IMG/VR virus record: IMGVR_UViG_3300042520_001691 | Coordinates: 1 to 61,635 of that record | Reading direction: 5' to 3' (one strand) | Source: a virus | Length of the DNA stretch: 61,635 bases | Shown here: in pieces, positions 6,436 through 28,317 of the stretch | Position numbering within the stretch: position 1 is the stretch's first letter | How the letters are laid out: every line of letters starts with the position of its first letter | The notes under the pieces: model-generated | What the model saw: the letters and a program-made list of their open reading frames with translations, nothing else | Database searches by the model: none | What the model was told of the DNA's origin: nothing | Made by a program: the position numbers and the translations under genes

Positions 6436-6445
6436 GAGTGTCCGC

Positions 6446-6478
6446 CGCGTCCTGCATCGGTTTCGCGGAGTCAAGCCG
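6446..6478 (-). promoter_or_regulatory. Conserved upstream element 1 (before portal)
   Basis: The minus strand reads GCTTGACTCCGCGAAACC then GATGCAGGACGCG, ending about 10 bases before the portal ATG. Closely similar sequence precedes the 22174 and 59506 starts. It could be a phage-type promoter (TTGAC box) or a post-transcriptional signal. No standard -10 box is evident at 16-18 bp. Confidence 0.45.
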
Positions 6479-6482
6479 AAAT

Positions 6483-9700: not shown

Positions 9701-12700
9701 ATCCACGCCGTTCTCCTTGAACGAAAGCGATTCGCCTTTCTTCAGCGCGTTCAGCTTTGGCTCAAGTGCCTTGACTGCCTCCTGCAATGTCGTGAAGCGA
9801 GTTCCGCCCACTTCAACATCGGTCTGCCTCGCGTTGTCGTAAAGCCACTGATGCGCGGCGCGCTCGATGAGGTAATCGCGCTGCTCCTTGAACTTCGGCA
9901 GCGGGCTATCTCCTGAGTATTTGTAAAGCTCTGGCGCCTCGTCGTTGTATTGCGTCGCAAATTCAAACTTCGACGCGCTGGCCCCGGTGTAATTCCAACT
10001 GAACGTGTGGCGGAGGCGTGATTCTCCCGTGAGACTTTGCGCCGCCTCAATGCGCTCGGATTTCCGCGTGAGTCGCCCATTCAATCCGAAGGCGCGCAAT
10101 TCGAGTTCGCCGTCCGGGTTGTTCTTCGTCTTCTTCAGCGGCTCCTTGAGCATGTCCAGAATCGTCATCGGGACTTCCTCCTTCTCGCCCTCTCCGATCT
10201 TTTCCTTCGCAAGCTCAAGCTCGGTTTGCTTTCCCTTTTTCTTCACGTCCCGAGTCACGACGAAAGGCGTCTCCGGGTCGAATACATGCTTGTCCGAAAG
10301 TTCCTTTTGCTTGGCCTCCTCGCCCTCCTTGACCCGGCGATCAATGTCGGCGTCGGCGGCGCGGTGGGCATCCCGAAGCGCGTCCACATGCGGGATGGCG
10401 CGATCATTTTCCTCGATGCCGCTTGTGAGTTCGCGGATTTCCTTTCGGATTCGCGCCTGTCGCCTGTCAAAGTCCTCCTGACTGATCTTCAGATCGCGCA
10501 CTTCGTTTTCGAGCGTGAAGCGCTCCATGACCAGCGGGTTCCCGCTCGCCGCGGCAATCATTTCCTGCCCGCGCAGTTCGGCGTCGCTGATGTCGGAAGC
10601 GGTGTCGCCCTTGTAATCTCCGTTCAGCAGATCCTCGACGATCTTCGTTTTCGTCGTGATCGTCTGGTAGATACGGCTGTCCAGCGTGCGCTCTACCGCG
10701 TTGCGCGTGATGATGATGTTGAAAGGGCCGAATTTTCCGCCCGGCCCGGTCGTGAGCGCGCCGTCCTTGCTGAGTTCGTAGCTCGGTTGCTGCGGCATCC
10801 GTCCCGGCGCCTTCTTGCCGCCGATAGTCGCCTCGTGGAAAAGGTTTCCCTGCCGGATGCCGCGGCCCTCGCGCTGCGTCATCTGGTCAGGGCGATAATT
10901 GGCGTCCATGCTGTGAACCGCGACCATCCGCCGCTGAAGATTCATGCCGGTGCCGAGCTTCATCGTTGTGCCGAGAAGCACGCGAATCTTGCCGGCGTTG
11001 AAGTTGCTTTTCAGTTCCTCCTTGTCCTCATCCTTCTCGTAATCGTGGATGATGGCGATCTGGTCCTCCGGCACGCCCATGCGGATCAGCTTGTCCTTCA
11101 TGTCGGTGAACACGTTGAACAGTTCAACTTTCTCGACGATGGGCTGCCCGCGTTTCGGTCCGCGCTTGTAACGCTCCGGCTCCCCGAAGGCATTCTTCCT
11201 GGCGCGCTCGACCTTGTTGGAATACAGGTCACAAAATACGATCTGCGTGCCCTTGCGGTAGTCGTTCGCCTTCCAGATTTCGTAGGTGTTCTTCGCGATG
11301 CGCGAGGATTTGTATTCAGGATCGTCCGGCAGATTCGCGTCAATCAACCGCGGGTCCGTGCTGATCTTTCGGGCGTCCGTGTTCAGCTTGAGCCAGTTGT
11401 CCACCCTCGGATCCACTTTCCCGCCGCGCAGCGCCTCCGCGCGCTCGACGACCTCGGCCATGTAGTCCTGAACAACCTGAGTCGGCTGGAACACGATGTT
11501 CTGAATCTTGCCGCCAAAGAGGGGCGGGACCGGAAGGTTCAGTTGCTCCTGGCGCTGGATGTCCACATACCGTCGGAACATCGTGATAAGGCTCTGCATG
11601 TTCTTGAACTCGACGAATTTCGCCTTGTTCTGGAACGTCTGCCCGTCGGGTGAGATTTCCGCAACCTCGCGCACGTCCGCGAACATCTGCGCCCACTCGT
11701 CAAAGTATTTGATGCCGGCGGCGTCTAGGAGATCCTGCGCGATGTACTTCTGAAGCAGATAGACCTCGGCGATCGTGTTGGTGATCGGCGTGCCAGTGGC
11801 GAACAGTAGGTTGCGGCCATTATTCTGCCGAAGGATGTAGTCGGTCTTCACCTTCAGTTGCGCGGTCTTGATCGTCTCCGTGTTCGCGCTCCCGAGGCCG
11901 CCGATGTTGTTCAGCTTCGTCCAGAAGTTCAGATTCTTGAACTCGTGGGCCTCGTCAATAATGATGGCATCCACGCCAAGCTCCTCGAAGTAGAGCGCCT
12001 TGTCCGCGCGCCGCGGATCGAGCAGCTTCTCCATCTTGCTCCGCTTTGCCGCAAGCGACGCCTCTAGCGCCTTGATGCGCTTCTTCCCCTGCTTGGAGTT
12101 TGGATCCACCTCGTCATTCGTGGCGCGCAATGCTTCCTCAAGTTCCGCAAGCTCGCCCTGGATGTGCGCGGCCATGAGATCCGGCGACACCGGGATCGAT
12201 CCGATCTGGCTGTGACCGATCAGCACGGCGTCCCAATTCCCCGTTGCAATCCGCGCCATGAGCCTCTGTCGGCGCTTTGCCGTGAAATCGCGTTCCGTCA
12301 CCGTGAGAATCTTCGCGGTCGGATACATCCGGTAGAAGTCCGATGCGGTCTGCCCACTGCGCAGAAGATGGTTCGGCACGATATACATGGGCTTGCTCGC
12401 GAGCCCCATGCGCTTCCACTCCATGCCCGCGCCGATGAAGGCGAACGTCTTCCCCCCGCCGACTACGTGCGCCGCCACCGCCTTACCGTCCACGGTCGCG
12501 CGCCAAACGAAATCGAGCTGATGCTTCCGAAGCGAGATTTCAGGATTCATCCCCTCCAGCGTGGAGTAGGGCGCATCGTACGTGCGCGGGCGGATTGCGT
12601 TCGCCAGTTCGTTGAATTTCTTCACCAGCGGCTCGTGGATGTCCGGGTTGTCGAGGATGAAGTTCTTGAACTCCTGTTTCAGTCGGTTTTGAGCCATCCG

Positions 12701-15700
12701 CGCCAGCTTCGTTTCCTTTTCGAGCACGACGGATGATCCGTCATCGAATCGCTTGCGAACCGTCGGGGACGAAAGATTCATGGACTGCGAGATCAGTTCC
12801 TCGGTGGAAACGTCTTCGGTTCCAAATCCCTCGGCGTTTCCGCGCACGGGCACATTGACCTCCCATCTGCCGTTCTTGTATTTGAACTCCGAAGCCTGCC
12901 CCCGGTCGCGGTAGATGTGCTTTACGAACTCGGAATAGGTGTGCGGATCGATCCACGCAGCACCCAAGGAGAATCCGATCCGCTCAACGGGGCGTAGTTC
13001 AGGGATCGCCTTCGTCAGTTCCTCGATGTTCTTGCGGAATGATTCGTCCGACTTCGCCGCTTCCTCTGCGGCGTGCAGCTTCTCGTAGATGTTGCCGGAA
13101 AGATACTCCTCGCGCTCGACGTAGTTGCCGGTGACGGCATCCCGGAACACAAGCCCCTCGCGCACCATCTCGTCCCCGAGTTCATCGGGATCTCTCATGG
13201 AGAGCTTCGCCTGAAGCTCCACGTCCACCTTGCCGGTCTGCGCCATGATCTTTGTCATGTTCTCGCGAGTGGTCCCGGTCAGTCCGGTGAGCGGTTCCTT
13301 GCGCGGGCGCGTCCGCTTGCTGAAAATGTCCGTCTTGGTCGTCTCGTTGTTCGTGGCGTCGTAATCTTCGAGCGCCATCAGCGCCGGGTAGAACGGATCA
13401 TCCTGAAACGCCGCGCGCGTCTTCCCTTCGTGCAGGAATCCATTCTCCTTCACGTAGGTATCATAAAACACGTTCAGATCCTTTTGCATCGCCGCAAGCG
13501 TGGCGTCGTCCGCATTCGTGACCTGGGCGTGGAGAACCGCCTTCAGCGACTTTCTCAACGGGATCAACTGCTTGATCCGCTCATAGTCCGCCTTGGTGAA
13601 ATCCCCATCGAAGGCATACGTGCTGAACTGCCTCTCAACGGTGGTGGTTCGCTCCGATCCGGTGAGCGGGTCTTCGTATTTTTCTTCGACCTCGCGGAAC
13701 TCCTTGTATTGCTCGCCCGTGATGTCGCCGGCCTCGATTTCGGCGCGCAGCTTGATGTCGGTCGGGTTCTTCGATTCCGGCCACGCCGCCCCGGTGCGCT
13801 TCACGGTGCCGTCGTCGTCAATCTCGACGTGACCGCTCTCGATGTAGCCGGAAAGCAGCGTGTGCCGCTTCGTGGTGGGTGAAATCTCCTTCCTCGGGCG
13901 CTCGACCTCGCCGCCGCGGAACACCTTCACTTCGTTCTTATGTAGAACGAACGATCCGTCCTTTTCAGAGTTCGGGTCAAATTCTAGTTCGTCGGCATTG
14001 CGAATGGTCGCCGCCTGCTTGTCTTCGGGAACAAAGATGTTTTCAGGGAGCGTCTTTTTGATCTGCTCGATGAGTTGGGCGACGGTTCGGCCATCCGAGA
14101 GAAGCGCCTTGCTTCCGACTTTCTTCGCATCCTCTCCGGCGGTCGTCTTGCCATACATCTTCCCTTCGCTCGTCATGATCCCGAGCATATTTGAGGGGTT
14201 GTCTCGGAAATACTGGTTGATGCGGATCTCGTCTCCGGTCCTCGTGGTGATGTGGACAGGGTTCAGCCAGTCCTTGTGCTCCATTGGAACGCCGGGGCCC
14301 CGTTTTTGTAGGATGATCAGGTCGGTCGTGACTTCCGTGGCTGCGTTTCCCTTGAACATCGTGTTCGGCAGTCGGAATGCCGCGACAAGATTCGCCTTGG
14401 CGGAAAGAACCTCGCGCACCGCCGATCCCATCTTGTCCATCGTGCCGATCGAAGTGATGGCGACCACGAATCCGCCGGGTCGCACCTTATCGAGCGATTT
14501 CAGGAAGAAATAATCGTGCAGGTTCGGGTTGATCTTGTTGTAGCGCGGATCGTTCGGGTGATCGGCGTCACTGAACGGGAAATTGCTCACGATGACATCC
14601 TGTGAGTTGTCCGCCATGACGTGCTTCTCGAACGGGCGGTTCCATACTTTTGACTCAGGATAGAGCACCTTGGCGATCCGAGACGTGAGATTGTCCATCT
14701 CGATGCCGGTCAAGCTGGAGTAGCGCGCGATCTCCGCCGGCATGAAGCCGTAGAAGCTCCCGATGCCCATTGAAGGCTCCGTGATGCGCCCGCTCTGGAA
14801 TCCCATCTTGGCGAGCGCGCCCCAAATGCCCTGCACCATCTCCGGGGCGGTGAAGTGCGCGTTTGTCGTGCTGCGGCGCGCGCTCGCCATCTCGTCGTCG
14901 CTCAGTCCGAGTGCCTGCATCTCGTCGTAGAACTCTCCGCCGGGCTGGAATGCCTTTTCAGCAAGTCCACCCCATCCGACATACCGCGCGAGCGTCTTCT
15001 GTTCCTCTGGCGTTGCGTCCCGGCGTTCCGCTTCGATCGCGCGAAGCGTCTTGATCGCGGATACGTTGTCGCGAAACTTCCGGGTCAGTCCGCCTTCGCC
15101 GATGCCGTCGCTGAGTTCGAGTCGGAGGTTTCCGCGTCCGGCGGAAATGTCGCCCACTCGTTCATCGCTGTCTCCCTCGCTTCCTGCTTTGATCTTCCCT
15201 CCTGAAGAAGCGCCCTCTCCGTCTGAAACAGGTTCTTCGCCCGTTCCGCCAGTTGCGCCTTCCACTTTCCCTCCTCCTGTAATTTTTCCACCAGCCCCGG
15301 ATTCTGCGCCTCCAGGCGTTGTTCCACCATCGCCATTATCATCCGCAGGACTTTCAAGTTTGGGGGTAGTGGCTGGTTGCTCATCTGGTGTTACGATATC
15401 GGTTTTCGGTTCGGGCGCAAGCTGCGCGTAGATGGATTTCCAGTTTGGTTCAGCCGAACCTTGCGCCCCTTCGCTTTTCATCTTGAACCAAATGTTTTGC
15501 GAGAACGCCAACGCCTTCGGGCCGAGTTCCGTCAGCGCGGCGGCCAGCTTCTCAGGAGTGTCAACGCCGTGGCTGTCAATCAGGTCAGCCGTCAGAGAGT
15601 TCAGTGCATCGCGCTTCTCGCGCGGGATCGGAGCGTCGTAACGCGGCTCAGGTGCCGCCGCTGAAAACAGATCACCCAGCTTGTCCTTGATGGCCTGCGC

Positions 15701-18700
15701 GCCCGGCGAGAGCTTCGGCGCATCCGCCTTCTTCTCCGGCAGCACGCTGCCCCGGTTCGGGAGCGGGGATTTCGCGGACTTCTCCCAGAATGAAAGATCG
15801 TCTCCGGCTTCGAGCTGGAAGTCCTCGGCGTAGTCCTTGGTGTCGTCGGGCTTCCGGTTGCGTGCCTTGTCCCACACCTTTTGTGCGCGCGTGGCCGGGA
15901 CGCCGTATTCCGCCATCTTCTTCAGCAGCGCATCCGGCGAGAGCGTATTCAGCCACTTCTCGGACAGCGCGCGGCGTTCGGCAAATGTGGCGTGCGGTTC
16001 AAGAACGGCGGGCTTTTGGGACTCTAAGTTCGGGAGCGGGGGTTTCGGTTTCTCGGCGGCGGCTTCTTCCGCGGTGCGCCATTCGCCTTCCGGTGTCTGC
16101 TTCTGGGCTTTCACGCCCGCGCGAGTCGGCACGATATACACGGGCGCGGAAATCTTCACGCCGTCCTCGATGCGGTAGCGCACGCCGTTTTCGTCCTCGT
16201 AAAGCTGCTGCCCCCTCTCGTTCACTCCGACGCTGTTGCTCTTGGGCTTTGGTTTCTCTGGCGTTTCTGCCTTGCGCGCGTTGTCGTAAATCCCATCGAT
16301 CTCACCCTGCTTCTCTGCGATCTGTTTTTCGAGACGCGCAAGCGATGCGCCTTTGTCGTTCATCGCCATGTCGTCAGCGACCGGACGCCCTTGGTTCAGC
16401 TTTTTGATCTCCGCGCGCAAGGCATCAACCTTCCGCTGCTCGTCAGGATTAAGATCGCGCCGCTCTGGACGGGTTGCGGGTTTCTCGGCCTTCGGCTTCT
16501 TCGCTGCCTTCTCCGTCTCCGCGCCCTTCATCCGCGCCTCGATGTCCGCGATCAGCTTGCGCGTCGCGTCGGTCATGTTGCCGAGGATGCGCTTGATGTG
16601 CGCGATCAAGTCCTCGATGAATTTCCAAGTGCTCTCGGTGGTCACTCCGGCCTTGCCTTGCATGATCACGCGGGCGATCTCGGCCGCTTTGTGTTCCGGA
16701 TCAAGGGCGTCGAATCCCTTGTAGTGTTTTTGCAGATACTCCACCGCGGCGGGCTCGTCCTCGATGAGCTTCAGCGCGCGCGCGCGGTTCGCGGGTGACT
16801 CATTGACGAAGTTCATGAATCCTTTATGAAGAACCTCCTCGCCGATTGCCGCGTTGATGTAGGTCTCGCGCTCCTTTGGCGTCATTTGCTCCGTCGCCGC
16901 GTCGAGCTTCTCGGCATCCACGGTGATCTTGCCATTGTGGAGCGCGATTCCGCTCTTGTTCGATTCGGGAAGCTCCGCCTCGTGCGCGCGGGCGATGTGG
17001 CCGAGATTGCTCAACTCCTTCGCGTGGCCGCGCATGGCGACGTTCACCGTGCCGACGATCTTCTTCCGCCGCTCTACCGTTTCCGCATCGGGCTTACCGC
17101 CAGCCTGTCCAGCGGGCTCGCCGCCGGGTTTGCCTTCTTCGGTTTTCGCCACTTCGCTTGCTCCACCTGCGGGCTTTGCGCCTTCAGGTTGGCTTTGGTC
17201 GTTGCGTTCGCTTGCGGGTAGCTTTGGCTCATTGGGTGCGGGTGGTTCTGGTAATGCATTTTGTCTAGGCGCTTCCTTTCGCGCCGGTCTTGATCCCGTG
17301 TATTGCGAAAGCCCCTCGGATTCAGGTACCGGCAATCCACGACGCAACGCCTCCTTGAACACCGCACCGATGTTGATTCTGGTTTCCAGATTCGACCGAT
17401 CGCTCTTCGGAATACGCATCCCGGAAGCCTCTTGCTTAATCTGATCAATTAGATTTTTCGCCTGGGTTCCCAGCGCATCCGTCAGGAACTTGTCAGACTT
17501 GGTTTTCAGCCAACTATCATACGCCTCCCATGTCTTAAAGGTAGTCGGCTTTCCAAGTTCACGCCTGTCCGAATGAAACTGGCTTTCGCCAATGATCTTT
17601 TCGTGCGGAGGCTTCGCGTCTGGAAGCACCGATGGTTTCTCTGGTTCAACCCACCCTTCCGGCGCAACTCCGCCTTTTCCATGAGCGCGCAAGAAAGCCT
17701 CTGCATCCTCTCGTTTCTCGTAAGGATCGGATTCCTTTCCGGTATCCAAGTTTCGGATCACGTAGAACGACGGCTCTCCCATTCCTTGCTCGCCTTCGTG
17801 CTGGTCAATGACGTAGCGGTAGGCTTCTTTCTCCCGCAGCCCCCTCCCGTCCTCCCAATCATGCGTTCCGCTTTCGAGGCGGTCGCGGACGATCTGCGGC
17901 ACCTGCTCGGGAATGTCCGTGCCGAGACGCTGCTTCATGTCCTCGAAAATCGCATCCTTCTCCGCCTTCGCTTCGGCGATCACGTCGCTGTTCCCTTGCC
18001 CTTTCGCCATCGCGATCTTGCGGTCGGCGTCGGCGAGGCGCTGCGTGAAATCTTCCATGACCGGCGCGATGCGCTGATCTAGGTCGCTCGGGATTTCCGG
18101 TGATACCTTCGCGACCGCCGCAGGCGCGGGTTCCGTGGGCGCTGGCGGCTCCGGCGTGACCTCCACCTTGTCGAGTTCGCTTCCAAGTTTTTCCCCGATG
18201 TTCGTCGTGCCGGGTTCTGCGGGCTTCGGATTCGGCGTGACCGGCTTCGCTGTTGCGGACGCAGGAGGCTGCGCCTCGGGTTCCGGTAGTCCAGCCTTCA
18301 TCGGCTCCACGCCTTCGATATTCGTGGTGCGCGCCTGCACCGGCCCGGCGATCTGTGTCGCTCGGGCGTATTCCGCCTGCGCTTCCGCCGCGGTGATCCC
18401 GTGCTTATTCCCGATGGCTTCCCAGTCGGTCTGCCCGTCCTTCTGGAACTCGAAAGTATCCTTGTCGCGAATCTCCTTCTGCCGCGGCGTGCGGCGAATC
18501 TCGGCATCGCGCGCAACCTTTGCGTAATCGCCAGCGGGGCGATCCTCGCCCGTGAGCACTTGGCGCACGTTGATGCTGAACCTCTCCGGGTCTTTGATCA
18601 GCGCCTCGCCGCTCTCCTTCATCTTCGCGAGCTTTTCGCCGATGCTCATGAACGCATCGTTCTCCGACGGGCTCAACACCTGGTCCAGCGACTTTCCGTC

Positions 18701-20623
18701 TCTCATCGCCTGCATCCCGCGCTTCACGATGTCGGTCGCCTCCGCTGTTCCAATGTCCTTGATTTTTAGGTGAAGCCCCGAAAGGAGCGCGCCGATGCCT
18801 GCCATTTCGAGCACCGATCCAACCGTTGGAGCCTGCACGCCCTCCTTCTCTCCACCGAGCGCACCGCCGATCTGATCTACCATCCAATCGAAGCCAGGGC
18901 GGATCGTCGTCTCGAAGATTGCGCCGCCGACCGCTCCAGTGCCGGCGGTCTTGCCGAGGTAGCCCGCTGCGGCCTTTGCGCCGGATGCGCCGGCCCCGGT
19001 TGCTTCCGCCGCCGCCACGCCTGCGGCCTTGCTGAGATTCATCGCCGACTTGATCGCCGCTGGCCCCATGCCTGCGAAGTTGCCAAGCTGCGCTGCGCCG
19101 GGTTGCAGCTTGATGGCGGCCTGAATGCTCGCCATGTCGTCGCTGTATTCCGCCGCCTTCTCGCTAAGTGCGTCGAGCGCCTTGTTTGCGCCGAACATGC
19201 CCGCAAGGAACGCTACGCCGTGAGCCAGCATCGGAACCACTACCGCGCCGACGCCGCCCAGTGCCGCGCCGCCGGCAGCAAGTTCAGGGTCGAATGGCGC
19301 AACCAGCGCGGATGCCGCCATGCCCGCCTGCAACGCGGTGTAGGACTTCACGCCACTCGCGATGAATGCCTTGAGCTTCTGATTCCCTCCCGCCTGCTTT
19401 ATGAGTTCCTGATACTTGGCGTCCGCGGTGCGTGCGGCTTCGAGCACTTCTGGCGCGGGCGGGGCGATCAGCCCGTCCTGCGCGGCGGCGGTCAGTCCCT
19501 CCTCATACTTTCCGTCGATCGGCTTCGGTTTTCCTCCCTCGATGGCATACGGCTTCTGCCCGGCCACTGCCTGCTTGTAAGCCTGCGCGGTTGCGGGATG
19601 CACTCCGGCGGACTGCGCGATCTGTTCGTTCTGCGCGGAATCCTCTGGCGTGTCGCCGTATTGCTGCCGCGGCTGCGAAATATCGATCCCCTGCGCTTTC
19701 AGAATCTCGGTCTCGTGATCGAGCTTCGTCTGCTCGATCATCATCCGCTGCGCGCGCACGGCTTCCGCCTGCTGCCGGATTCCGTCGAGCGTCTGCGCGT
19801 GCGCGTGGCCCTTGGCCGCGGCGCGGAGTGCGGCGGTGCGGGACAGGTCGAGTGCCTGCTGCGCCTTCAGTGCCTCCGGTGTGTAGCCGCCCATCCCGAA
19901 GTATTCCTTCGCGTTCGCCGTCGTGTCGTTCTTCTTCAGGTCGTCGAACTGGCTGTTGATGCCGGCCACGAGGCTGTCGTAGTCGAGCGGATCGCCGGTC
20001 ACGGAATTTGTGTCGGCTACGCTGAGCTGCTTCAACTGCGAGCGCACGTCCTTGATGGCGTCACGGTGGAATTTCTCGTCGTATTCAGTGAGCGTGAGCT
20101 TGCGGCCGAGCGCGGCGCTGGCTTTGGAAAGGTTTGCGTCCTGCCGCGCAAATTCCGCCTTCTGCGCGGTCTGCGCGTCCGTTCCCACCCATCGCCACGG
20201 GAGACCGGGCGCGATCTTGTATTGGTGCCCCGTCTTCGGGTCGGTGGTGGTTTCCAGCCCCTCAAACGGATCTTTCAGCACGGGCGATCCGCCAGCCACG
20301 TCGAAATCGATCTTCTTCGGCGAGCCGGTGGAGTCGTAGGCGATGTTGTGCTTCGGATCGAGCTTGCTCAGCGGCGATCCGGTGTCGTCCATGACGGGCT
20401 TCGTGTTGCCCTGCATGTCCTGGTAGCTTGGCACGCCGCGGGCGGCCCACTGCTTGCCCTTGATCGCTTGGATGCGCGCGGTGGCTCCGGCCTGCTGCGC
20501 GCTGCGGTATTGCGTGTCGGCGTAGCTTTCGCCGGGCTGTGAGGGTGTCTCGAGAATGGATCGGGCGACATCGCCCACCGCCCCCGGATCAACTGCGAGC
20601 TGTTCGTATGCGTCGAATCCCAT
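6725..20623 (-). CDS. Giant polyvalent protein: putative protease region, N6-adenine methylase, SF2/SNF2-type helicase, 4632 aa
   Basis: A single 13.9 kb frame takes up more than a fifth of the genome. Visible parts in order are as follows. There is an N-terminal helical region with hydrophobic stretches near residues 425-500 and 560-620. A metallopeptidase-like segment GEEVLHKGF lies near 1264. A disordered Pro/Gly/Glu linker spans about 1740-1850. A DNA methylase follows (YVGWGG near 1884, SAM-site segment EPSMGIGSF, catalytic NFPF near 2014 in place of NPPY/F). A helicase follows (GGGKT Walker A near 2721, DEAH near 2891, ATGTPITN near 2946, QREGRGIRQGN motif VI near 3251). Next come coiled coils and a long C-terminal helical region with a hydrophobic segment near 4363. 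The methylase-helicase pair resembles DarB-type antirestriction proteins, which P1 injects with its DNA. Lying between a probable internal virion protein and the portal, this one may also be ejected; that is inference. A second frame near 15.1-15.4 kb also encodes a sensible protein. Confidence 0.85.
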   Translation of the reverse strand: MGFDAYEQLAVDPGAVGDVARSILETPSQPGESYADTQYRSAQQAGATARIQAIKGKQWAARGVPSYQDMQGNTKPVMDDTGSPLSKLDPKHNIAYDSTGSPKKIDFDVAGGSPVLKDPFEGLETTTDPKTGHQYKIAPGLPWRWVGTDAQTAQKAEFARQDANLSKASAALGRKLTLTEYDEKFHRDAIKDVRSQLKQLSVADTNSVTGDPLDYDSLVAGINSQFDDLKKNDTTANAKEYFGMGGYTPEALKAQQALDLSRTAALRAAAKGHAHAQTLDGIRQQAEAVRAQRMMIEQTKLDHETEILKAQGIDISQPRQQYGDTPEDSAQNEQIAQSAGVHPATAQAYKQAVAGQKPYAIEGGKPKPIDGKYEEGLTAAAQDGLIAPPAPEVLEAARTADAKYQELIKQAGGNQKLKAFIASGVKSYTALQAGMAASALVAPFDPELAAGGAALGGVGAVVVPMLAHGVAFLAGMFGANKALDALSEKAAEYSDDMASIQAAIKLQPGAAQLGNFAGMGPAAIKSAMNLSKAAGVAAAEATGAGASGAKAAAGYLGKTAGTGAVGGAIFETTIRPGFDWMVDQIGGALGGEKEGVQAPTVGSVLEMAGIGALLSGLHLKIKDIGTAEATDIVKRGMQAMRDGKSLDQVLSPSENDAFMSIGEKLAKMKESGEALIKDPERFSINVRQVLTGEDRPAGDYAKVARDAEIRRTPRQKEIRDKDTFEFQKDGQTDWEAIGNKHGITAAEAQAEYARATQIAGPVQARTTNIEGVEPMKAGLPEPEAQPPASATAKPVTPNPKPAEPGTTNIGEKLGSELDKVEVTPEPPAPTEPAPAAVAKVSPEIPSDLDQRIAPVMEDFTQRLADADRKIAMAKGQGNSDVIAEAKAEKDAIFEDMKQRLGTDIPEQVPQIVRDRLESGTHDWEDGRGLREKEAYRYVIDQHEGEQGMGEPSFYVIRNLDTGKESDPYEKREDAEAFLRAHGKGGVAPEGWVEPEKPSVLPDAKPPHEKIIGESQFHSDRRELGKPTTFKTWEAYDSWLKTKSDKFLTDALGTQAKNLIDQIKQEASGMRIPKSDRSNLETRINIGAVFKEALRRGLPVPESEGLSQYTGSRPARKEAPRQNALPEPPAPNEPKLPASERNDQSQPEGAKPAGGASEVAKTEEGKPGGEPAGQAGGKPDAETVERRKKIVGTVNVAMRGHAKELSNLGHIARAHEAELPESNKSGIALHNGKITVDAEKLDAATEQMTPKERETYINAAIGEEVLHKGFMNFVNESPANRARALKLIEDEPAAVEYLQKHYKGFDALDPEHKAAEIARVIMQGKAGVTTESTWKFIEDLIAHIKRILGNMTDATRKLIADIEARMKGAETEKAAKKPKAEKPATRPERRDLNPDEQRKVDALRAEIKKLNQGRPVADDMAMNDKGASLARLEKQIAEKQGEIDGIYDNARKAETPEKPKPKSNSVGVNERGQQLYEDENGVRYRIEDGVKISAPVYIVPTRAGVKAQKQTPEGEWRTAEEAAAEKPKPPLPNLESQKPAVLEPHATFAERRALSEKWLNTLSPDALLKKMAEYGVPATRAQKVWDKARNRKPDDTKDYAEDFQLEAGDDLSFWEKSAKSPLPNRGSVLPEKKADAPKLSPGAQAIKDKLGDLFSAAAPEPRYDAPIPREKRDALNSLTADLIDSHGVDTPEKLAAALTELGPKALAFSQNIWFKMKSEGAQGSAEPNWKSIYAQLAPEPKTDIVTPDEQPATTPKLESPADDNGDGGTTPGGAESGAGGKITGGGKVEGATGGTGEEPVSDGEGASSGGKIKAGSEGDSDERVGDISAGRGNLRLELSDGIGEGGLTRKFRDNVSAIKTLRAIEAERRDATPEEQKTLARYVGWGGLAEKAFQPGGEFYDEMQALGLSDDEMASARRSTTNAHFTAPEMVQGIWGALAKMGFQSGRITEPSMGIGSFYGFMPAEIARYSSLTGIEMDNLTSRIAKVLYPESKVWNRPFEKHVMADNSQDVIVSNFPFSDADHPNDPRYNKINPNLHDYFFLKSLDKVRPGGFVVAITSIGTMDKMGSAVREVLSAKANLVAAFRLPNTMFKGNAATEVTTDLIILQKRGPGVPMEHKDWLNPVHITTRTGDEIRINQYFRDNPSNMLGIMTSEGKMYGKTTAGEDAKKVGSKALLSDGRTVAQLIEQIKKTLPENIFVPEDKQAATIRNADELEFDPNSEKDGSFVLHKNEVKVFRGGEVERPRKEISPTTKRHTLLSGYIESGHVEIDDDGTVKRTGAAWPESKNPTDIKLRAEIEAGDITGEQYKEFREVEEKYEDPLTGSERTTTVERQFSTYAFDGDFTKADYERIKQLIPLRKSLKAVLHAQVTNADDATLAAMQKDLNVFYDTYVKENGFLHEGKTRAAFQDDPFYPALMALEDYDATNNETTKTDIFSKRTRPRKEPLTGLTGTTRENMTKIMAQTGKVDVELQAKLSMRDPDELGDEMVREGLVFRDAVTGNYVEREEYLSGNIYEKLHAAEEAAKSDESFRKNIEELTKAIPELRPVERIGFSLGAAWIDPHTYSEFVKHIYRDRGQASEFKYKNGRWEVNVPVRGNAEGFGTEDVSTEELISQSMNLSSPTVRKRFDDGSSVVLEKETKLARMAQNRLKQEFKNFILDNPDIHEPLVKKFNELANAIRPRTYDAPYSTLEGMNPEISLRKHQLDFVWRATVDGKAVAAHVVGGGKTFAFIGAGMEWKRMGLASKPMYIVPNHLLRSGQTASDFYRMYPTAKILTVTERDFTAKRRQRLMARIATGNWDAVLIGHSQIGSIPVSPDLMAAHIQGELAELEEALRATNDEVDPNSKQGKKRIKALEASLAAKRSKMEKLLDPRRADKALYFEELGVDAIIIDEAHEFKNLNFWTKLNNIGGLGSANTETIKTAQLKVKTDYILRQNNGRNLLFATGTPITNTIAEVYLLQKYIAQDLLDAAGIKYFDEWAQMFADVREVAEISPDGQTFQNKAKFVEFKNMQSLITMFRRYVDIQRQEQLNLPVPPLFGGKIQNIVFQPTQVVQDYMAEVVERAEALRGGKVDPRVDNWLKLNTDARKISTDPRLIDANLPDDPEYKSSRIAKNTYEIWKANDYRKGTQIVFCDLYSNKVERARKNAFGEPERYKRGPKRGQPIVEKVELFNVFTDMKDKLIRMGVPEDQIAIIHDYEKDEDKEELKSNFNAGKIRVLLGTTMKLGTGMNLQRRMVAVHSMDANYRPDQMTQREGRGIRQGNLFHEATIGGKKAPGRMPQQPSYELSKDGALTTGPGGKFGPFNIIITRNAVERTLDSRIYQTITTKTKIVEDLLNGDYKGDTASDISDAELRGQEMIAAASGNPLVMERFTLENEVRDLKISQEDFDRRQARIRKEIRELTSGIEENDRAIPHVDALRDAHRAADADIDRRVKEGEEAKQKELSDKHVFDPETPFVVTRDVKKKGKQTELELAKEKIGEGEKEEVPMTILDMLKEPLKKTKNNPDGELELRAFGLNGRLTRKSERIEAAQSLTGESRLRHTFSWNYTGASASKFEFATQYNDEAPELYKYSGDSPLPKFKEQRDYLIERAAHQWLYDNARQTDVEVGGTRFTTLQEAVKALEPKLNALKKGESLSFKENGVDVSVKAEEKKSLTEDEKKNADMLGVVPMLYHANFPALKDVGAQAYNPLASSDASQLIWHIANSLKWIPSSEQIQKNVADQKNQLKMKQDAVQTAFPEADQLDEKQARLAEVVRLTSGDPHARTADPNDDDGQIADDGSGETFSAAAPERRATDAVAAGAKGREETKEDRKAAQAATFATKPPGVASQIWDAVKTAGSATKRWWGEMPAYDTIDKAIGQWLGAGDSAPLKGTDIVIPGRQKAAHESRKLVETIVKQFPNVLTRQAISRYMEADGDKATLQKWADKSKPEMKAVYERALNLNAAEKAMADTAKTFFKEKGEEAQKLGLLGNLLENYVTHFVEKAPANQRSGLMARILGDLASDTPASKLKTKFDHAIKRVFASMFDLEQEGHSLRGGGDIAGTLGAYAQAANNTVADRVFVKSLTDIMARDGRPMAVPSGAITRTDGSADSPLLIKPHTHPADTSDYRPISHPALRKWKWLGKEGEKDVLVEGELLIHPDLYKRLKNTLGTSALNNVPIIKAVGEFQAIVKQLMLSFSPFHFVQEGTHAIGHKVNPFKVTEIDMDDPATRELVNAGLMLANWNAKAEFGEGLTASGMEKLLSHIGLGKLGKLNDTMSAFLFEKYIPGLKIAMAKEAMVRNMERFKKDLASGKMTREQVAQKTAQQANDAFGEQNNLYAGNNPTRLHFERLLFLAPDFLKSRAKFFADAFRKHGKEQRNALILLAVVLAVTAKLLERMLTGKNDWEKPFSVVTEGREYELRSVPGDVIALLKNRRQFVMGRISPLISRTALEAATGRDWRGQQRSGAQQVKDLAMTPLPLALRGVIDPEAPDISAAESLISSSGLRTIRHSEITKARKLGREWQKANGSEHVDEVHPPSKYVGIKNALEDGDSARAMKEYGKLLATMPKDKADTGFRSSLMKPFSGSLANEKAFVASLDADDRATYQAAMTKRGRMLAAFTRMSATTRAPANAPRAAAKAAPIGSRNLTVKEFFR
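15085..15384 (-). CDS. Nested 99-aa ORF inside the polyvalent gene, other frame
   Basis: ATG at 15384 opens a frame (MSNQPLPPNLKVLRMIMAMV) shifted relative to the giant gene. Unlike other shadow frames here, it has balanced composition and amphipathic helices: EAQNPGLVEKLQEEGKWKAQ, then RAKNLFQTERALLQEG and NEWATFPPDAE. The pattern NP-x-LV-x-L then a helix ending E-W-A-x-x-P is, from memory, like small proteins often found near phage helicase-methylase genes. In the giant frame the same bases encode low-complexity Gly/Ser/Glu linker, the expected result of overprinting. It could be expressed separately, or could mark an old junction between fused genes. Translation is unproven. Confidence 0.5.
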   Translation of the reverse strand: MSNQPLPPNLKVLRMIMAMVEQRLEAQNPGLVEKLQEEGKWKAQLAERAKNLFQTERALLQEGRSKQEARETAMNEWATFPPDAETSDSNSATASAKAD

Positions 20624-22544: not shown

Positions 22545-23099
22545 TCAGGCGACGTGCTTCCATGTTTTGCGCAAGACGATTAGGACGATGTTCGCTTGGC
22601 TGACTCCGAACCGCGCTCCAAGTTGGCTGCTTGAGATTCCTCCTGCGGCGTAAATGGTGCGAATTTCGCGAACAGAATCATCCGTGAGCTTCGCTCCTCC
22701 GACGCGCGAGCCCCTTGCCGCGCGCAATGGGTTCATGCGCAGACCATGTGTTTCGCCTATTGGTCGCCTCCCCTTCCGCGTCATGTCCGCCATGTTGTCG
22801 GCATCCGTTCCTGTAAAAATATGCCCTGGGTTGACGCATTTTCTGTTGTCGCATTTGTGACAGCAAAGAGTGCCTTGCGGAACGTCGCCGCTTGACAGCA
22901 CGAATGAAATCCGGTGCGCCCTCATGCTTTTTCGGTTCACGTAGAATACTCCGTACCCGTCTTTATCCAGCCTGCCGAGCCAACCCCAACAGGAATCGGG
23001 ATCGCGTTTCTCAACCCTTGACCAGAAACGGTCAATGTATTTTTCGGAAAGATTGACCGGTGCTGTCTGTCGCGCTATCGAGAGTGAAGCATCTTGCAT
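22545..23099 (-). CDS. HNH homing-type endonuclease with C-terminal HTH, 184 aa
   Basis: The HNH core spans residues ~60-95: [14 protein letters not shown], then [20 protein letters not shown]. It has the paired cysteines and His residues of the HNH_3 type found in free-standing phage homing enzymes. The C-terminal ~55 residues ([18 protein letters not shown], then [16 protein letters not shown]) form a helix-turn-helix of the kind that gives site preference. It is inserted between the large terminase and the Lar-like gene, so it is probably a mobile intergenic endonuclease. An upstream CTTGACCGAACC box lies at the terminase stop. Confidence 0.85.
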
Positions 23100-23183: not shown

Positions 23184-25463
23184 TCAAGAAAACATTGACG
23201 ACCTTTTCTTGTCCCCTCCGAAAAAAGACTTCGGCGGCACGGGCCGATAAACTCCGGCAAATTTGATCAGCAGCAGACCGATCCCGATGGCAGCGATCCA
23301 GTCGTCGTGTTTTGAAGGAGCCGCCTCTGCTTTGCCGCGATCTGTGATGATGAAGGTTCTCATCTCTGACACTGCCGGCTTGAAAGCGCACTCGAACTCC
23401 CCTTCCCGAATCGCGTCCGCGATCGATCCAACCCACATGTCCCTTGTTGAACTGTTCGTCTCAAACCCGAGCGTGGGCATCAGCTTGCCCGGGATAAAGT
23501 GATCCTGCTTCTGTCTCTGGTAAATGTTCGCACCGAAGTCGCGCAGTTTCACAAGCACATCCAGCCCATTTCCAGTTTCGGGGCACACCATACAGCCGCC
23601 GAAATAGTTGGCGAGCATTGCGGTGCGCTCCGCGACGATCGATGCGTCCCACCGACACCCGCTCGGCTCCACATGGATCGCCGCGACGACTGCGACCGGA
23701 TGCAGCACGTTCTTCTCGCAAATGTAGGGTTGGCGAAGCACCACGCAGGCGTGGGCGTCTGGATTTTTCGCGCCATTGCTCTGTGATCCCTGGCATGGAT
23801 CGATCGCGACGATGTAGGCACACCCGCGGATCGGTTTTTCCTTCAGCCAAAGCCATGCGTCCTCCTTCTGCGGCACGAAAATCACGTTCGCCTCGCTCCC
23901 GGTGAGGATTCCGCGCTCGGCAAGGTCGTGTTCGCGCTCGGCCATGATTTCCAGCCTCGTCACGCCGTCGTCGTCGAAGCGCGGGCGGCCTGACTGGAGG
24001 AAGCAGTCCCGATCGTTCTCCGGGTAATCCTGGTCGAAGATCGATTCATCCCCGTCGCACTCACTCGCGATCGTGTAGCGCCTCCACGCGATTTGTTCCG
24101 CGGTCCACCCGTAAAGCTGGCGTCCGCGCTTCTCCCGATAGGAGTAGGTCGTGTGAAAATGCTCCTCGTAGTGCGGCGCGCGCGGCAGCACGCCGTCGGC
24201 GAACTCGAACCACGCCGCGAAAATCTTGATCCAGCCGTTACCGAACTTCCCGGCCTTCATGTCCTCCAGCGACACGGCGCCCTGCCAGTTGTTGTAGAAG
24301 AAGCCGTTCGCGCCTTCCGCCGTGGACTCCATCGCGGCCAGCGAGCGCGGCCCTTTCGAGAGCGACGCCAGTGATGCAGTGATCACCTTCACGTCCGTCC
24401 GCGATCCAGACTTTGGGTAGCGCGCGGCCTCAGTGTACCAAATCGCCTGGCGCGTGCCCGAGATGCCGGCTTTCGGGTCGTTGGCGGTGTCATACTCCCA
24501 AAGCCCCTTCGTGCCGTCGGCGTAGGTGAAGCTCGCCTTCTTCGTGTCGTAGGCAAACTTCGAGTCCCACGGAAACTTGTCGCGGATGCTGTATTCCGTG
24601 AAAATCTGCCACACCTTCATCACGCGGCTGCTTTCGTCCCCGATGATCAGCCCGTCGGTGTGAAAGCGGCGCGCATGGTGATAGAAAAGCTCGCCGAAGA
24701 ACGTGCTCGATCCCTTTTGTCGCGGCTTGAGCGCCTGCAACCGTGGCGCGATGCCGTTCTCGATGCACCACTCGTACGCCTCGTTGATTCGCATCTGGAG
24801 GATGTTCGGAACGGGCGTCACCATGTTGTGATCCTTGTCCTCGATCTCCACCATCGTCGCGAAGTGGACAATCGGGCTGCCCTGGATGAGCGCCACGGCC
24901 TCGTCGTTCGTGATCTGGCTCGTGTCCGGCGGCCGGTATTGCTGGCTGCGGCGGTTCGGCCCCCGGTAGTTCACCGGCATGGACTCGATGCCGTGCCAGT
25001 TCTTGCGCAGGTAGGTCTCGATGCCCTCGCTCGGCTCCAGCTTCCCGTGCTGCGCCTCAAAAGCATCCATCGCGTCGTCGAGGCTCGTGTTCGGGATGAT
25101 CTCCAAGACCTTCGCCATGAACAGCACGGCCAGCATGGGCGCGCGGCTCCGGCCCTGGTCGCAGTGGATCGTGATCGGTCGATCGTCGAGCCAGTTGTCG
25201 CGCGCGAATCGCAGGAACGCTGTGAAGCTCTGCGTCTGGAAGTAGGCTGTCGTCGCGTCAATCAGGTTCAGGTAAAGATCGCCCTGCTCCACGAAACTGA
25301 GATACCGCTTGTCCGTTGGTGACAGCTTCCCCGCCTTGGCCTGGTGGCACGTTTTGCATCCATGCACGATGCACGCTGACTTGCCGGCGGAATGAAGGCG
25401 CGGCGCATTGCACGCGGCACGGTCGCCGATGGAAAGTTTGCCGCTGATGAGTTCGCGGGTCAC
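23184..25463 (-). CDS. Terminase large subunit with N-terminal dual-specificity-phosphatase-like domain, 759 aa
   Basis: The C-terminal two thirds is a packaging ATPase-nuclease. It has a Walker A-like KPRQKGSST near residues 244-252, a Walker B-like AIWYTEAARY near 341 (Thr-Glu instead of Asp-Glu), and an RNase H-type nuclease with Asp in AYIVAIDPCQG near 552, ETGNGLDVL, and HDDW near 721. The N-terminal ~165 residues are unusual for this family. After four cysteines (CNAP, CIVHGCKTCH) comes a sequence with the phosphatase loop HCDQGRSR (Cys101, Arg107; C-x5-R), preceded by the Asp of NLIDA and followed by the helix typical of dual-specificity phosphatases (TSLDDAMDAFEAQHG). The frame is continuous, so the fusion is real in this sequence. 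It starts at a GTG overlapping the previous stop (GTGA). Confidence 0.85.
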   Translation of the reverse strand: MTRELISGKLSIGDRAACNAPRLHSAGKSACIVHGCKTCHQAKAGKLSPTDKRYLSFVEQGDLYLNLIDATTAYFQTQSFTAFLRFARDNWLDDRPITIHCDQGRSRAPMLAVLFMAKVLEIIPNTSLDDAMDAFEAQHGKLEPSEGIETYLRKNWHGIESMPVNYRGPNRRSQQYRPPDTSQITNDEAVALIQGSPIVHFATMVEIEDKDHNMVTPVPNILQMRINEAYEWCIENGIAPRLQALKPRQKGSSTFFGELFYHHARRFHTDGLIIGDESSRVMKVWQIFTEYSIRDKFPWDSKFAYDTKKASFTYADGTKGLWEYDTANDPKAGISGTRQAIWYTEAARYPKSGSRTDVKVITASLASLSKGPRSLAAMESTAEGANGFFYNNWQGAVSLEDMKAGKFGNGWIKIFAAWFEFADGVLPRAPHYEEHFHTTYSYREKRGRQLYGWTAEQIAWRRYTIASECDGDESIFDQDYPENDRDCFLQSGRPRFDDDGVTRLEIMAEREHDLAERGILTGSEANVIFVPQKEDAWLWLKEKPIRGCAYIVAIDPCQGSQSNGAKNPDAHACVVLRQPYICEKNVLHPVAVVAAIHVEPSGCRWDASIVAERTAMLANYFGGCMVCPETGNGLDVLVKLRDFGANIYQRQKQDHFIPGKLMPTLGFETNSSTRDMWVGSIADAIREGEFECAFKPAVSEMRTFIITDRGKAEAAPSKHDDWIAAIGIGLLLIKFAGVYRPVPPKSFFGGDKKRSSMFS

Positions 25464-25807
25464 GGATGCTCTTCGATGAATTTTTGAATAAGCTCAGGTA
25501 GCGCGGCCCTGGCCTGCATGAGCTTGTCGAGTTGTGTGGATGAGGAATCCTGGGTCCAGCTAAATCCTACCCATTCCCGCTTTCCTTTGTGCAGGAACTC
25601 GCGACCGAGACACCAATCAGTTCCGTGATTCGTTCTTTCAAGCGTTTCATGATGAAGCAAATTAACCTCCCTTGCCTTACACAGCAAAAGCCGCGAAAGT
25701 GCTTCGCGAATGAGCGCGGCGTTAAAGATGGCGTTGTTATTCGCTTCATCGTTCAAAAGAAGCTCGGCGATTTCAACGTCGGATTTTTCTGTGAATACGG
25801 TTTTCAT
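25460..25807 (-). CDS. Unknown protein upstream of the large terminase, 115 aa
   Basis: The protein (MKTVFTEKSDVEIAELLLND) is mostly alpha-helical and acidic, with a central His/Cys-rich segment (LLHHETLERTNHGTDWCLG). The longer frame upstream lacks sense, so ATG at 25807 is preferred. Its stop overlaps the terminase GTG, so the two are translationally coupled and may act together. No domain is recognised. Confidence 0.65.
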   Translation of the reverse strand: MKTVFTEKSDVEIAELLLNDEANNNAIFNAALIREALSRLLLCKAREVNLLHHETLERTNHGTDWCLGREFLHKGKREWVGFSWTQDSSSTQLDKLMQARAALPELIQKFIEEHP

Positions 25808-25847
25808 GTTTGGGATTAAAGTGCTGTAATTATGGTGAGTTCCCGGG

Positions 25848-26231
25848 TCATGAGATCGGGCGCGGTGCCTGGAACCTGTCTCGGGTTGGTTCGTAGTCGG
25901 CCTCATGTTCTCCTCCGCAGCGTCCGCAGCGAACTGGATGCAGTTTCGGCGTATCCGCACGCGGCTTCTCTGCCGTTTCAGACCAAGGGATTTCATACAA
26001 GCACCTGCATCCGCGACAGCGGACAAACTGCGTGTCGTGATTTCGGTAGTCCTCGATCATTCCGCGGACGATTTTATCCATGTAATCCCTTTCTACGGGA
26101 TCTGGCTCTGATTGCACCGCAACCCCGAACCATTGCTCGTTCTCACCATCGGTCGCGGTGATGGAAAGTCGCCAACCCCATTCCAGTTTTTCAAGAACGG
26201 GTTCACCGGGTGTCATATTTTGCTTGTTCAT
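25848..26231 (-). CDS. Zinc-ribbon protein of the packaging cluster, 127 aa
   Basis: The C-terminal half carries two Cys pairs, CRGCRC near residue 72 and CGRCGG near 105, which would form a zinc ribbon. The N-terminal half is a beta-rich domain (LEKLEWGWRLSITATDGENE). It starts four bases after the preceding stop. It lies among terminase-associated genes, but no specific role is evident. Confidence 0.65.
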   Translation of the reverse strand: MNKQNMTPGEPVLEKLEWGWRLSITATDGENEQWFGVAVQSEPDPVERDYMDKIVRGMIEDYRNHDTQFVRCRGCRCLYEIPWSETAEKPRADTPKLHPVRCGRCGGEHEADYEPTRDRFQAPRPIS

Positions 26232-27343: not shown

Positions 27344-28063
27344 TCAAAATTCACTCCCCGGCGGAGGCTGCGGCAACGGCGCGGGCTTCGGCGCTTCAAT
27401 CTCGATCGCCTGCGCCTGCTTTGGCTGGCTCGTCGGACTCAGCCGGCGCACCACGTCCGCAATCGCCGCCGGATCCGTGATGACAATGTTGGTCGTGGTC
27501 CCGGCCTCCTTCGGCTGCTCCGGCTTGAACTCCTCCCGCATCCCTTTCAGCAGAACTTCCATGAGCTTGTCCGAATACTCCCGCTCGTAGCCCACCAGGT
27601 TCCCAAGTTGGAACACCGGCTTCACCACCCCGTGCACGGCCCGGTTGTAGGCCGACGCGAGCAGCGTGTCCTTCGCGTCACTCGTCGCTTCCCGCTCCAA
27701 ATCCGAAAACCCAGGCACGCGCCGCCAATATGCCAGCTTCACGCCACTGACACCCGCCGCCTTCCGCGCCATCGCAGGCGCCGGGCACGCACGCAACGCC
27801 CCGAGATACTTCATGATCTCCGGCGGCAGCCGGCGCAGCAACGCCGCCGACTTGCTCCGCGGCTCCTTCGGCTCCGCCACCGGATGCAACTCCACTTCCT
27901 CATCCACCTCGCCCGGCATCAGCGGTTCCGTTTCCATCGGCTCCGGCTCCCGCGTTTTCTGCACCATGTCGTCAATCCAAGACTGCCCGGGCACTTCCGG
28001 CGGCGGCTCCACGTTCGCGTATTCGTCCTCCTCGCGCTGCCTCGATCGCGGGCGTCCGCTCAT
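27344..28063 (-). CDS. Terminase small subunit (probable), 239 aa
   Basis: The N-terminal ~80 residues are acidic and disordered. The core has a helix-turn-helix-like stretch (MARKAAGVSGVKLAYWRRVP). The segment AVHGVVKPVFQLGNLVGY, then YSDKLMEVLLKG, is a pattern characteristic of phage small terminases that recognise the packaging site. ATG at 28063 overlaps the preceding stop (ATGA). Four small genes separate it from the large terminase, in the same direction. The N-terminal frame upstream of 28063 is discarded as non-coding. Confidence 0.75.
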   Translation of the reverse strand: MSGRPRSRQREEDEYANVEPPPEVPGQSWIDDMVQKTREPEPMETEPLMPGEVDEEVELHPVAEPKEPRSKSAALLRRLPPEIMKYLGALRACPAPAMARKAAGVSGVKLAYWRRVPGFSDLEREATSDAKDTLLASAYNRAVHGVVKPVFQLGNLVGYEREYSDKLMEVLLKGMREEFKPEQPKEAGTTTNIVITDPAAIADVVRRLSPTSQPKQAQAIEIEAPKPAPLPQPPPGSEF

Positions 28064-28317
28064 GCGTTCCCCTTTGCGGCTTCGTCGAGTTCGGTAAGGA
28101 GTGCGTCCCGCTCGGATTTGAAATCCATCGCAATCCGCGCCTGGTGCTCCATCTCCTGCTGACAGCGCCCCGCCCACTCGCGGATTTTCTCCCGCTCGGC
28201 GCGGGCTGCGTTGCGCTCGCGCTCCAGCCGCTCGCAGAAGGCCACGATTTGCGCGTCCTCGGGCACATTGTCCGTGAACATTGCGTCCGTCTCAGGTGTG
28301 GGCGCGGGCATATTCAT
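28060..28317 (-). CDS. Coiled-coil phage protein with PETDA motif, 85 aa
   Basis: The N-terminal PTPETDAMF segment followed by FCERLERERNAARAEREKI is a pattern seen in many small phage proteins of unknown role. The rest is one long charged coiled coil. Both ends overlap neighbouring genes by the ATGA arrangement, which fixes the start at 28317. Confidence 0.65.
   Translation of the reverse strand: MNMPAPTPETDAMFTDNVPEDAQIVAFCERLERERNAARAEREKIREWAGRCQQEMEHQARIAMDFKSERDALLTELDEAAKGNA

What the first reader, a model, noticed from the sequence alone, without database searches (positions are those of the whole stretch)
23184..25463. Large terminase fused to a dual-specificity-phosphatase-like domain
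The continuous terminase frame begins with about 165 residues carrying the phosphatase signature HCDQGRSR (Cys101, Arg107), an upstream Asp in NLIDA and the expected following helix, plus a four-cysteine N-terminus. Phage terminases normally begin with the ATPase. I do not know of a described fusion of this kind. It could act on phosphoproteins, nucleotides or RNA ends, or be an inactive recruitment module.
Basis: partly seen in the sequence, partly recalled or inferred. Interest (0 to 1): 0.85.

Follow-up and report, generated by a model that had tools for sequence, protein, structure and literature searches.

The report
Phosphatase domain on phage packaging motor
In this virus of bacteria the motor protein that stuffs DNA into the new virus shell carries at its front an extra enzyme-like part of the kind that removes phosphate groups, and related viruses keep the same kind of enzyme fused to, or encoded close to, their packaging motor, which suggests an undescribed link between phosphate removal and DNA packaging.

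Summary
Window 23184-25463 (minus strand, GTG start, 759 codons) is one open frame: residues 1-165 are a dual-specificity-phosphatase (DSP) domain, about 186-737 a large terminase, joined by a low-confidence linker. The DSP model (pLDDT 92) matches human DUSPs (Z 14.3); the rest matches T4 gp17 (Z 23.1). The join is uninterrupted in 17 records of five lineages, down to 28% terminase identity. A terminase tree rejects one clade for the fused forms (AU p 8e-5), so the join probably arose at least twice or was often lost. The DSP family mostly stands alone: in 16 of 28 dereplicated standalone loci it lies within 2.5 kb of a same-strand terminase gene (4.2 expected at random); in the other 12 it does not. 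Catalytic Asp, Cys and Arg are kept in 45 of 45 sequences; dN/dS against a near relative is 0.065. I infer an active phosphatase coupled to the packaging motor. Its substrate is not shown: a nucleic-acid end or nucleotide is my first guess, a phosphoprotein the main rival. The 'four-cysteine' motif is no family-wide metal site. No paper found describes the fusion. New variant of a known kind.

The parts
23184..25463 (-). DSP-TerL fusion gene, 759 aa, GTG start, stop included
   Evidence: frame kept in relatives
24969..25463 (-). dual-specificity-phosphatase domain, residues 1-165
   Evidence: Pfam DSPc (under the cut-off), AF2 pLDDT 92.2, Foldseek and VIA to DUSPs, profile to DUSP10 E 6.9e-9
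25344..25364 (-). family motif H34-x-C36-K37-x-C39-H40; K37 in 45/45, H40 in 43/45
25257..25259 (-). D69, presumed general acid (45/45)
   Evidence: role inferred from the DSP mechanism (recalled)
25143..25166 (-). HCDQGRSR phosphate-binding loop, residues 100-107, nucleophile C101 and R107 (45/45)
   Evidence: roles inferred
24933..24971 (-). linker, residues 165-177, low confidence
   Evidence: pLDDT under 50
23994..24908 (-). TerL ATPase domain, about residues 186-490, with K-P-R-Q-x-G-x-S-T loop (no Lys right after the Gly) and EST-A-x-G motif
   Evidence: VIA to T4 gp17 and P74-26 ATPase domains; invariant residues
23253..23993 (-). TerL RNase-H-like nuclease domain, about residues 491-737; D555, E629, D720, D721 invariant in 10 TerL rows
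   Evidence: PHROG 24361 terminase E 7.1e-7, VIA Z 21.6 to RB49 and G20c nuclease domains
24005..24006 (-). empty intein site before C487, filled in L002, L005, L006, L007 and L035
   Evidence: LAGLIDADG_3 shown for L002
25460..25463 (-). 4-base overlap (GTGA) between the stop of an upstream ORF (25460-26026) and the start of the fusion gene; translational coupling possible
   Evidence: no Pfam match for the upstream ORF, it may not be a gene

Best explanation
The gene makes one polypeptide: an N-terminal DSP-type (CX5R) phosphatase on a short flexible linker, followed by a complete large terminase. SHOWN in silico: the join, both folds, complete catalytic residues, purifying selection, recurrence of the join, and clustering of the standalone form with terL genes in about half of the loci. 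INFERRED: the domain is an active phosphatase (Cys101 attacks phosphate, Arg107 binds it, Asp69 gives the proton) that the linker brings to the packaging motor and that other phages encode near it. GUESS at the substrate (about 0.4): a chemically uniform, non-protein phosphate met at the motor, that is the end of a nucleic acid, or a nucleotide, rather than a host-specific phosphoprotein, because K37, N66 and the active-site loop hardly vary among phages with very different terminases. If a DNA end, the effect would be to take terminal phosphate off ends that the terminase makes or holds, shielding them from ligases and from 5'-phosphate-dependent exonucleases.
For: Frame kept in 17 records of five lineages. 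DSP fold; profile to DUSP10 E 6.9e-9. TerL fold. D69, C101, R107, K37, N66, S106 in 45 of 45 (5 fused, 40 standalone, near-copies included). dN/dS of the DSP part, window against L007: 0.065, 39 synonymous and 11 nonsynonymous differences. Fused TerLs as one clade: AU p 8.35e-5 against (quick tree of 46 representatives). Standalone DSP genes within 2.5 kb of a same-strand terL in 16 of 28 clusters, expected 4.21, P 2.5e-8; 10 of 20 on contigs of 20 kb or more, expected 1.59, P 5.5e-7; without the three loci that gave the idea, 13 of 25 and 8 of 18, P 2.4e-6 and 2.9e-5. These terLs are of several families. For the nucleic-acid guess, weak single cases: one standalone gene directly follows a HAD_PNKP gene in Vibrio phage 1.077.O, and one lies between a conjugative coupling protein and a relaxase.
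Against: No activity or substrate is shown. The residue after R107 is Ala in the window (S 21, A 17, G 7 of 45), where Ser/Thr helps phosphoenzyme hydrolysis in many DSPs (recalled). The nearest folds and sequences are mostly protein phosphatases, which speaks for the phosphoprotein rival. HAD_PNKP occurs in 1 of 37 records. In 12 of 28 clusters no same-strand terL lies within 2.5 kb; in eight of these a terL match is 5 to 25 kb away, as it is in Vibrio phage 1.077.O. In distant pairs dN/dS of the DSP part is 0.25-0.51 with dS saturated, and for L012 it is twice that of the motor. L055 and L056 rest on one contig each; L056 is a long branch, and the DSP tree does not reject one clade (AU p 0.305). 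Phage genes are not placed at random, so the enrichment P values are rough. I recall no CX5R enzyme that removes a 5'-monophosphate from DNA.
Confidence: 0.55

Rival explanations
1. Motor-tethered protein phosphatase: the DSP dephosphorylates a packaging or capsid protein, or undoes a host kinase-based defence that senses packaging or late proteins.
For: Closest solved folds and sequences are mostly protein DUSPs. [quoted passage not shown] Stk2/PacK in staphylococci (recalled; only search listings seen).
Against: K37 and N66 are invariant in 45 of 45 sequences, unexpected for a domain adapted to varied host proteins (inference). No paper with four phrases on phosphorylated terminase was found. 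An anti-kinase would not need fusion to TerL.
Confidence: 0.3
2. Inert or weak DSP used as a phosphate-binding or protein-binding adaptor that brings TerL to a partner.
For: Ala after the catalytic Arg in the window; Pfam score under the curated cut-off.
Against: General acid, nucleophile and Arg kept in 45 of 45; for the 37 sequences the search patterns did not contain D69 or R107.
Confidence: 0.1
3. Passenger: a neutral in-frame join of an accessory gene inserted upstream of terL, without a role in packaging; the neighbourhood may simply be a hotspot for accessory genes.
For: Standalone genes often lie next to terL, which makes an accidental join easy; an HNH gene lies right beside the fusion gene (window 22548-23099).
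Against: Purifying selection, retention down to 28% terminase identity, fused forms in separate TerL clades, association over several TerL families.
Confidence: 0.12
4. Artefact of sequencing or assembly: two adjacent genes read as one.
For: L055 and L056 rest on single contigs.
Against: Same uninterrupted frame in ten records of the window's clade, three of the L012 group and two of the L053 group.
Confidence: 0.02

Closest known systems
Vibrio phage VpV262 ORF44 (AAM28387.1) and Vibrio phage 1.077.O NVP1077O_32, standalone phage DSPs
   Same: Same family by local profile (E 2.2e-27 and 7.3e-39); VpV262 also by fold (Q8LT65, TM 0.74/0.79); both annotated as DSP
   Different: Standalone, about 20 kb from terL
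Human DUSP10, DUSP1, DUSP5, DUSP22 catalytic domains
   Same: Fold (Z 12.5 to 15.4 among the DUSP rows listed), HCxxGxSR loop
   Different: 10-20% identity; known (recalled) to act on phosphoproteins; the HxCKx(P)xH motif is not in the aligned part
Bacteriophage T4 gp17 and other large terminases
   Same: ATPase plus RNase-H-like nuclease (Z 23.1)
   Different: No phosphatase domain; here the P-loop lacks the usual Lys after Gly
Vaccinia VH1; CX5R RNA triphosphatases (mouse capping enzyme 1i9s, DUSP11 4jmj)
   Same: Same fold, Foldseek E 1.3e-5 to 4.7e-5
   Different: Not joined to a packaging ATPase; the RNA enzymes rank below the MKP-type DUSPs
KKP kinase-kinase-phosphatase prophage module (PMC11341870; abstract and outline seen)
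   Same: A phosphatase in a phage setting
   Different: Balances kinases; no link to terminase told in the abstract; no sequence comparison made here

Membership tests
Dual-specificity phosphatase (CX5R) | H-C-x5-R loop | tested here: met
   C and R in 45/45, H in 41/45; C favoured by retrieval patterns
Dual-specificity phosphatase (CX5R) | General-acid Asp about 30 residues upstream | tested here: met
   D69, 32 residues before C101; 45/45
Dual-specificity phosphatase (CX5R) | DSP fold | tested here: met
   pLDDT 92.2; best PDB matches are DUSP-type phosphatases; Z 14.3, 134 residues, 3.1 A to DUSP1
Dual-specificity phosphatase (CX5R) | Pfam DSPc curated cut-off (33.5 bits) | tested here: not met
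   22.8 bits, E 8.4e-5. Filed as a divergent DSP by fold and by profile (DUSP10 E 6.9e-9), not as a Pfam DSPc member
Dual-specificity phosphatase (CX5R) | Ser/Thr after the catalytic Arg (usual, not universal; recalled) | tested here: not met
   Ala108 in the window; S in 21/45 of the family
Dual-specificity phosphatase (CX5R) | Phosphatase activity | not testable with these tools
   needs an enzyme assay
Phage large terminase (TerL) | ATPase plus RNase-H-like nuclease fold in one chain | tested here: met
   T4 gp17 Z 23.1 over 448 residues (rmsd 15.4 A over both domains); nuclease alone Z 21.6, 2.5 A over 190; ATPase to P74-26 Z 20.7, 3.5 A over 235
Phage large terminase (TerL) | Catalytic motifs | tested here: met
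   K246, R248, G251, S253, T254, E345, E379-T381, D555, E629, D720, D721 invariant in 10 TerL rows; roles recalled; the P-loop is deviant, without GK[ST]
Phage large terminase (TerL) | Terminase profile match | tested here: met
   PHROG 24361 terminase E 7.1e-7; Pfam gives no terminase family
Phage large terminase (TerL) | Packages DNA | not testable with these tools
   needs in vitro packaging
   C18, H34, C36, C39, H40 kept in five fused lineages, but C18, C36, C39 in 13, 30, 11 of 45 of the family

The most novel reading that the evidence does not exclude
A packaging-coupled phosphatase family: phages repeatedly bring one DSP family to the terminase, by gene neighbourhood and by at least two separate fusions, so that the motor carries an enzyme that changes the phosphate state of the DNA ends or another substrate it handles. 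That would add a third enzymatic activity, beside ATPase and nuclease, to a viral packaging motor.
Probability: 0.3. Interest if true: 0.88.

Novelty: new variant of a known kind. Interest (0 to 1): 0.74.

Why it matters
Large terminases are among the most conserved phage proteins and are taken to have two activities, ATPase and nuclease. A conserved, catalytically complete phosphatase on the same chain, with the same enzyme family encoded near terL in many other phages, points to a phosphate-removal step in or around DNA packaging that the papers searched do not describe. A single Cys-to-Ser change in a laboratory phage would test it directly.

Tried and rejected
Rejected: assembly artefact (independent contigs); chance motif (fold, profile, conservation); a family-wide zinc site; an inactive adaptor as first choice. 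An internal start that would make free TerL was looked for: Shine-Dalgarno-like sites before possible start codons lie at different residues in the five lineages and no shared one was evident (positions were not compared through an alignment). HAD_PNKP as a regular partner failed: 1 of 37 records. phmmer of the full protein against PDB sequences found nothing up to E 1; NCBIfam found nothing for five proteins. No fused form turned up among cultured phages: of 161 records that match the full protein none has a place covering 80% of it (20 rows shown, earliest start residue 162); with the fused L056 protein none of 163 does (20 rows shown, earliest start 210). In 398 genomes of the phylum of the Hyphomicrobium genome the family was found in 2, one of them that genome itself and the other with a stop inside.

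Results against my reading. Of 28 standalone clusters 12 have no same-strand terL within 2.5 kb: in L157, L160, L175, L182, L190 (VpV262), L191, L193 and L196 a terL match lies elsewhere in the record, about 5 kb away for L157 and 11 to 25 kb for the others (some of these matches hold stops); L167 has one about 2.9 kb away on a 5.8-kb contig; in L159, L176 and L195 none was found with three families. Vibrio phage 1.077.O, not among the 28, has its terL about 19 kb away. The DSP tree alone does not reject one clade of fused forms (AU p 0.305). In distant pairs dN/dS of the DSP part rises to 0.25-0.51 with saturated dS.

Rows dropped and biases. One search gave 42 relatives: L186, L187 and L194 are fused and were left out of the standalone count; L164 and L197 had no full DSP frame by my rule; 37 remained, in 28 clusters. 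The 45 sequences include near-copies. Search patterns contained C101, G104 and parts of the HxCKxPxH motif, and in earlier calls also N66, D69 or S106; D69, N66, S106 and R107 were not in the patterns, which gave 37 of the 45. Of 173 TerL relatives the best 80 were returned; of the 68 loci new to, 65 have no DSP in any frame of the locus (L152 lacks its N-terminal half). The TerL tree used 46 representatives of 66 rows.

Full report
What was checked. The frame at 23184-25463 is on the minus strand, starts with GTG, and runs 759 codons without a stop. Its start overlaps the stop of an upstream ORF by four bases. L005, L007 and L035 have ATG at the same codon, so the start is very probably right.

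What the two halves are. Pfam sees DSPc at residues 79-147 (E 8.4e-5, below its curated cut-off) and no terminase family; PHROGs sees a terminase at 606-725 (E 7.1e-7). An alignment of 14 DSP sequences gave an AlphaFold2 model with pLDDT 92.2 and pTM 0.89. Its best solved matches are DUSP-type phosphatases (Foldseek E 2.8e-6 to DUSP5; VIA Z 14.3, 3.1 A over 134 residues to DUSP1); in the viral library VpV262 ORF44 has the highest TM-scores of the rows shown. The alignment profile finds DUSP10 by sequence alone at E 6.9e-9. The full-length model (pLDDT 87.5, pTM 0.64) has a low-confidence linker at 165-177; residues 182-737 match T4 gp17 (Z 23.1) and residues 1-160 match DUSP1 (Z 15.4) in the same chain. 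The placing of the two domains to each other is not determined.

How widespread the fusion is. Ten records carry near-copies: the window, eight IMG/VR contigs (L001-L008) and contig L035, binned with a Verrucomicrobiota MAG, whose held sequence ends inside the terminase. Three contigs (L012-L014) share 68% of the terminase and 53% of the DSP. L053 with L054 (48% terminase identity), L055 (49%) and L056 (28%) are further fused lineages. In all five lineages D, C and R of the DSP are kept, and the main terminase motif residues are invariant in ten aligned TerL rows, fused and not. Of the 68 further terminase loci fetched at 49% identity or less, the 65 at 37% or less show no DSP. A quick tree of 46 terminases puts window, L007, L012, L053 and L055 in one clade with full support and L056 apart; holding all six together is rejected (AU p 8.35e-5). 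L056 is a long branch on one contig, so 'at least two fusions' is probable, not proved; one early fusion with many losses is the other reading.

The standalone family. Related DSPs of about 160 aa occur in Hyphomicrobium and an Acidobacteria MAG, in Vibrio phages, in an Alteromonas plasmid copy broken by a stop and in many viral contigs. The family is marked by H-x-C-K-x-P-x-H, L-x-L-N-x-x-D and HCN[QK]GxSR. Of 45 sequences (5 fused, 40 standalone, near-copies included) all keep K37, N66, D69, C101, G104, S106 and R107; the search patterns favoured some of these, but not N66, D69, S106 or R107 for the 37 that came.

Genes beside it. Three standalone loci (L082, L078, L083) first showed the DSP upstream of a terL. 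I then counted: 42 relatives, 39 not fused, 37 with a full DSP frame, 28 clusters at 80% identity. In 16 of 28 a terL lies on the same strand within 2.5 kb, downstream in 15 of the 16; a uniform-placement model expects 4.21 (P 2.5e-8). On contigs of 20 kb or more it is 10 of 20 against 1.59 (P 5.5e-7). Leaving out the three loci that gave the idea: 13 of 25 and 8 of 18 (P 2.4e-6 and 2.9e-5). The terL calls were checked with Pfam or PHROGs on the gene itself or on a near-copy from the same cluster or contig, except L177, which rests on similarity to L078 (phmmer E 7e-68). They fall in several families (phrog_2, phrog_38, phrog_36964, T7-like). In VpV262, 1.077.O and several others the gene is far from terL. 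The P values assume random placement and are rough.

Selection. Window against L007: 39 synonymous and 11 nonsynonymous differences in the DSP part, dN/dS 0.065; in TerL 188-545 it is 0.011. Against L012, L053 and L055 the DSP part gives 0.28, 0.25 and 0.51 with dS of 1 or more, so saturated. The domain is under purifying selection, weaker than on the motor's ATPase part in the near pair.

Mechanism. Shown: fusion, folds, catalytic residues, selection, association. Inferred: an active phosphatase tethered to the motor. The substrate is open. I lean to a nucleic-acid end or nucleotide because residues around the pocket do not vary among phages with different terminases and probably different hosts, and because of scattered nucleic-acid neighbours (HAD_PNKP in 1.077.O, coupling protein and relaxase in Hyphomicrobium, thymidylate kinase in L175, ERCC4 nuclease in L078). 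These are single cases, and HAD_PNKP was found in 1 of 37 records. The nearest solved relatives are mostly protein phosphatases, which keeps the phosphoprotein rival alive.

Literature. Searches of the open-access library for terminase with dual specificity phosphatase, with tyrosine phosphatase domain, and for four phrases on terminase phosphorylation returned no paper. Looser searches listed 80 (20 shown) and 15 papers; passages of four were read and none describes the fusion. Most subscription journals and all preprints are not held, so absence is not proof. KKP (PMC11341870) was seen as abstract and outline.

Verdict. The finding is real, recurrent and, in the papers searched, undescribed; activity and substrate remain to be tested.

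Noticed in passing
L002, L005, L006, L007, L035 (TerL); window site 24005/24006: An intein-like insert of about 357 aa sits in the terminase before C487 in five relatives (LAGLIDADG_3 shown for L002), while the window's site is empty.
   Followed up: partly
L082:1868-4321, L163:6982-9750, L177:6230-9004, L180:3509-6001: Terminases beside standalone DSP genes also carry LAGLIDADG inserts.
   Followed up: no
window 23244-23828 against L001, L002, L003, L005: Sharp rise in divergence within terL: dS 1.1-1.2 in residues 546-740 against 0.08-0.11 in 188-545, which looks like a recombination junction inside the nuclease domain.
   Followed up: partly
window 6725-20623 (-): A 4632-aa ORF with N6 DNA methylase and helicase C-terminal matches, next to a portal-like ORF at 4192-6531 (PHROG 1216 E 3.6e-8).
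   Followed up: no
L036:2184-8454: The Hyphomicrobium standalone DSP lies between a type IV coupling protein and a MobA/VirD2-type relaxase, another DNA-transfer system.
   Followed up: partly
L042:11384-12429: In Vibrio phage 1.077.O the DSP gene directly follows a HAD_PNKP (polynucleotide kinase phosphatase domain) gene; no such match in the other 36 records searched.
   Followed up: yes
L043 (Alteromonas plasmid pMIT1002): A DSP of this family is interrupted by a stop, and another piece lies about 20 kb away.
   Followed up: no
window 27344-28177 (-): A 277-aa ORF without a Pfam match looks to me like a small terminase; this is an impression from the sequence only.
   Followed up: no
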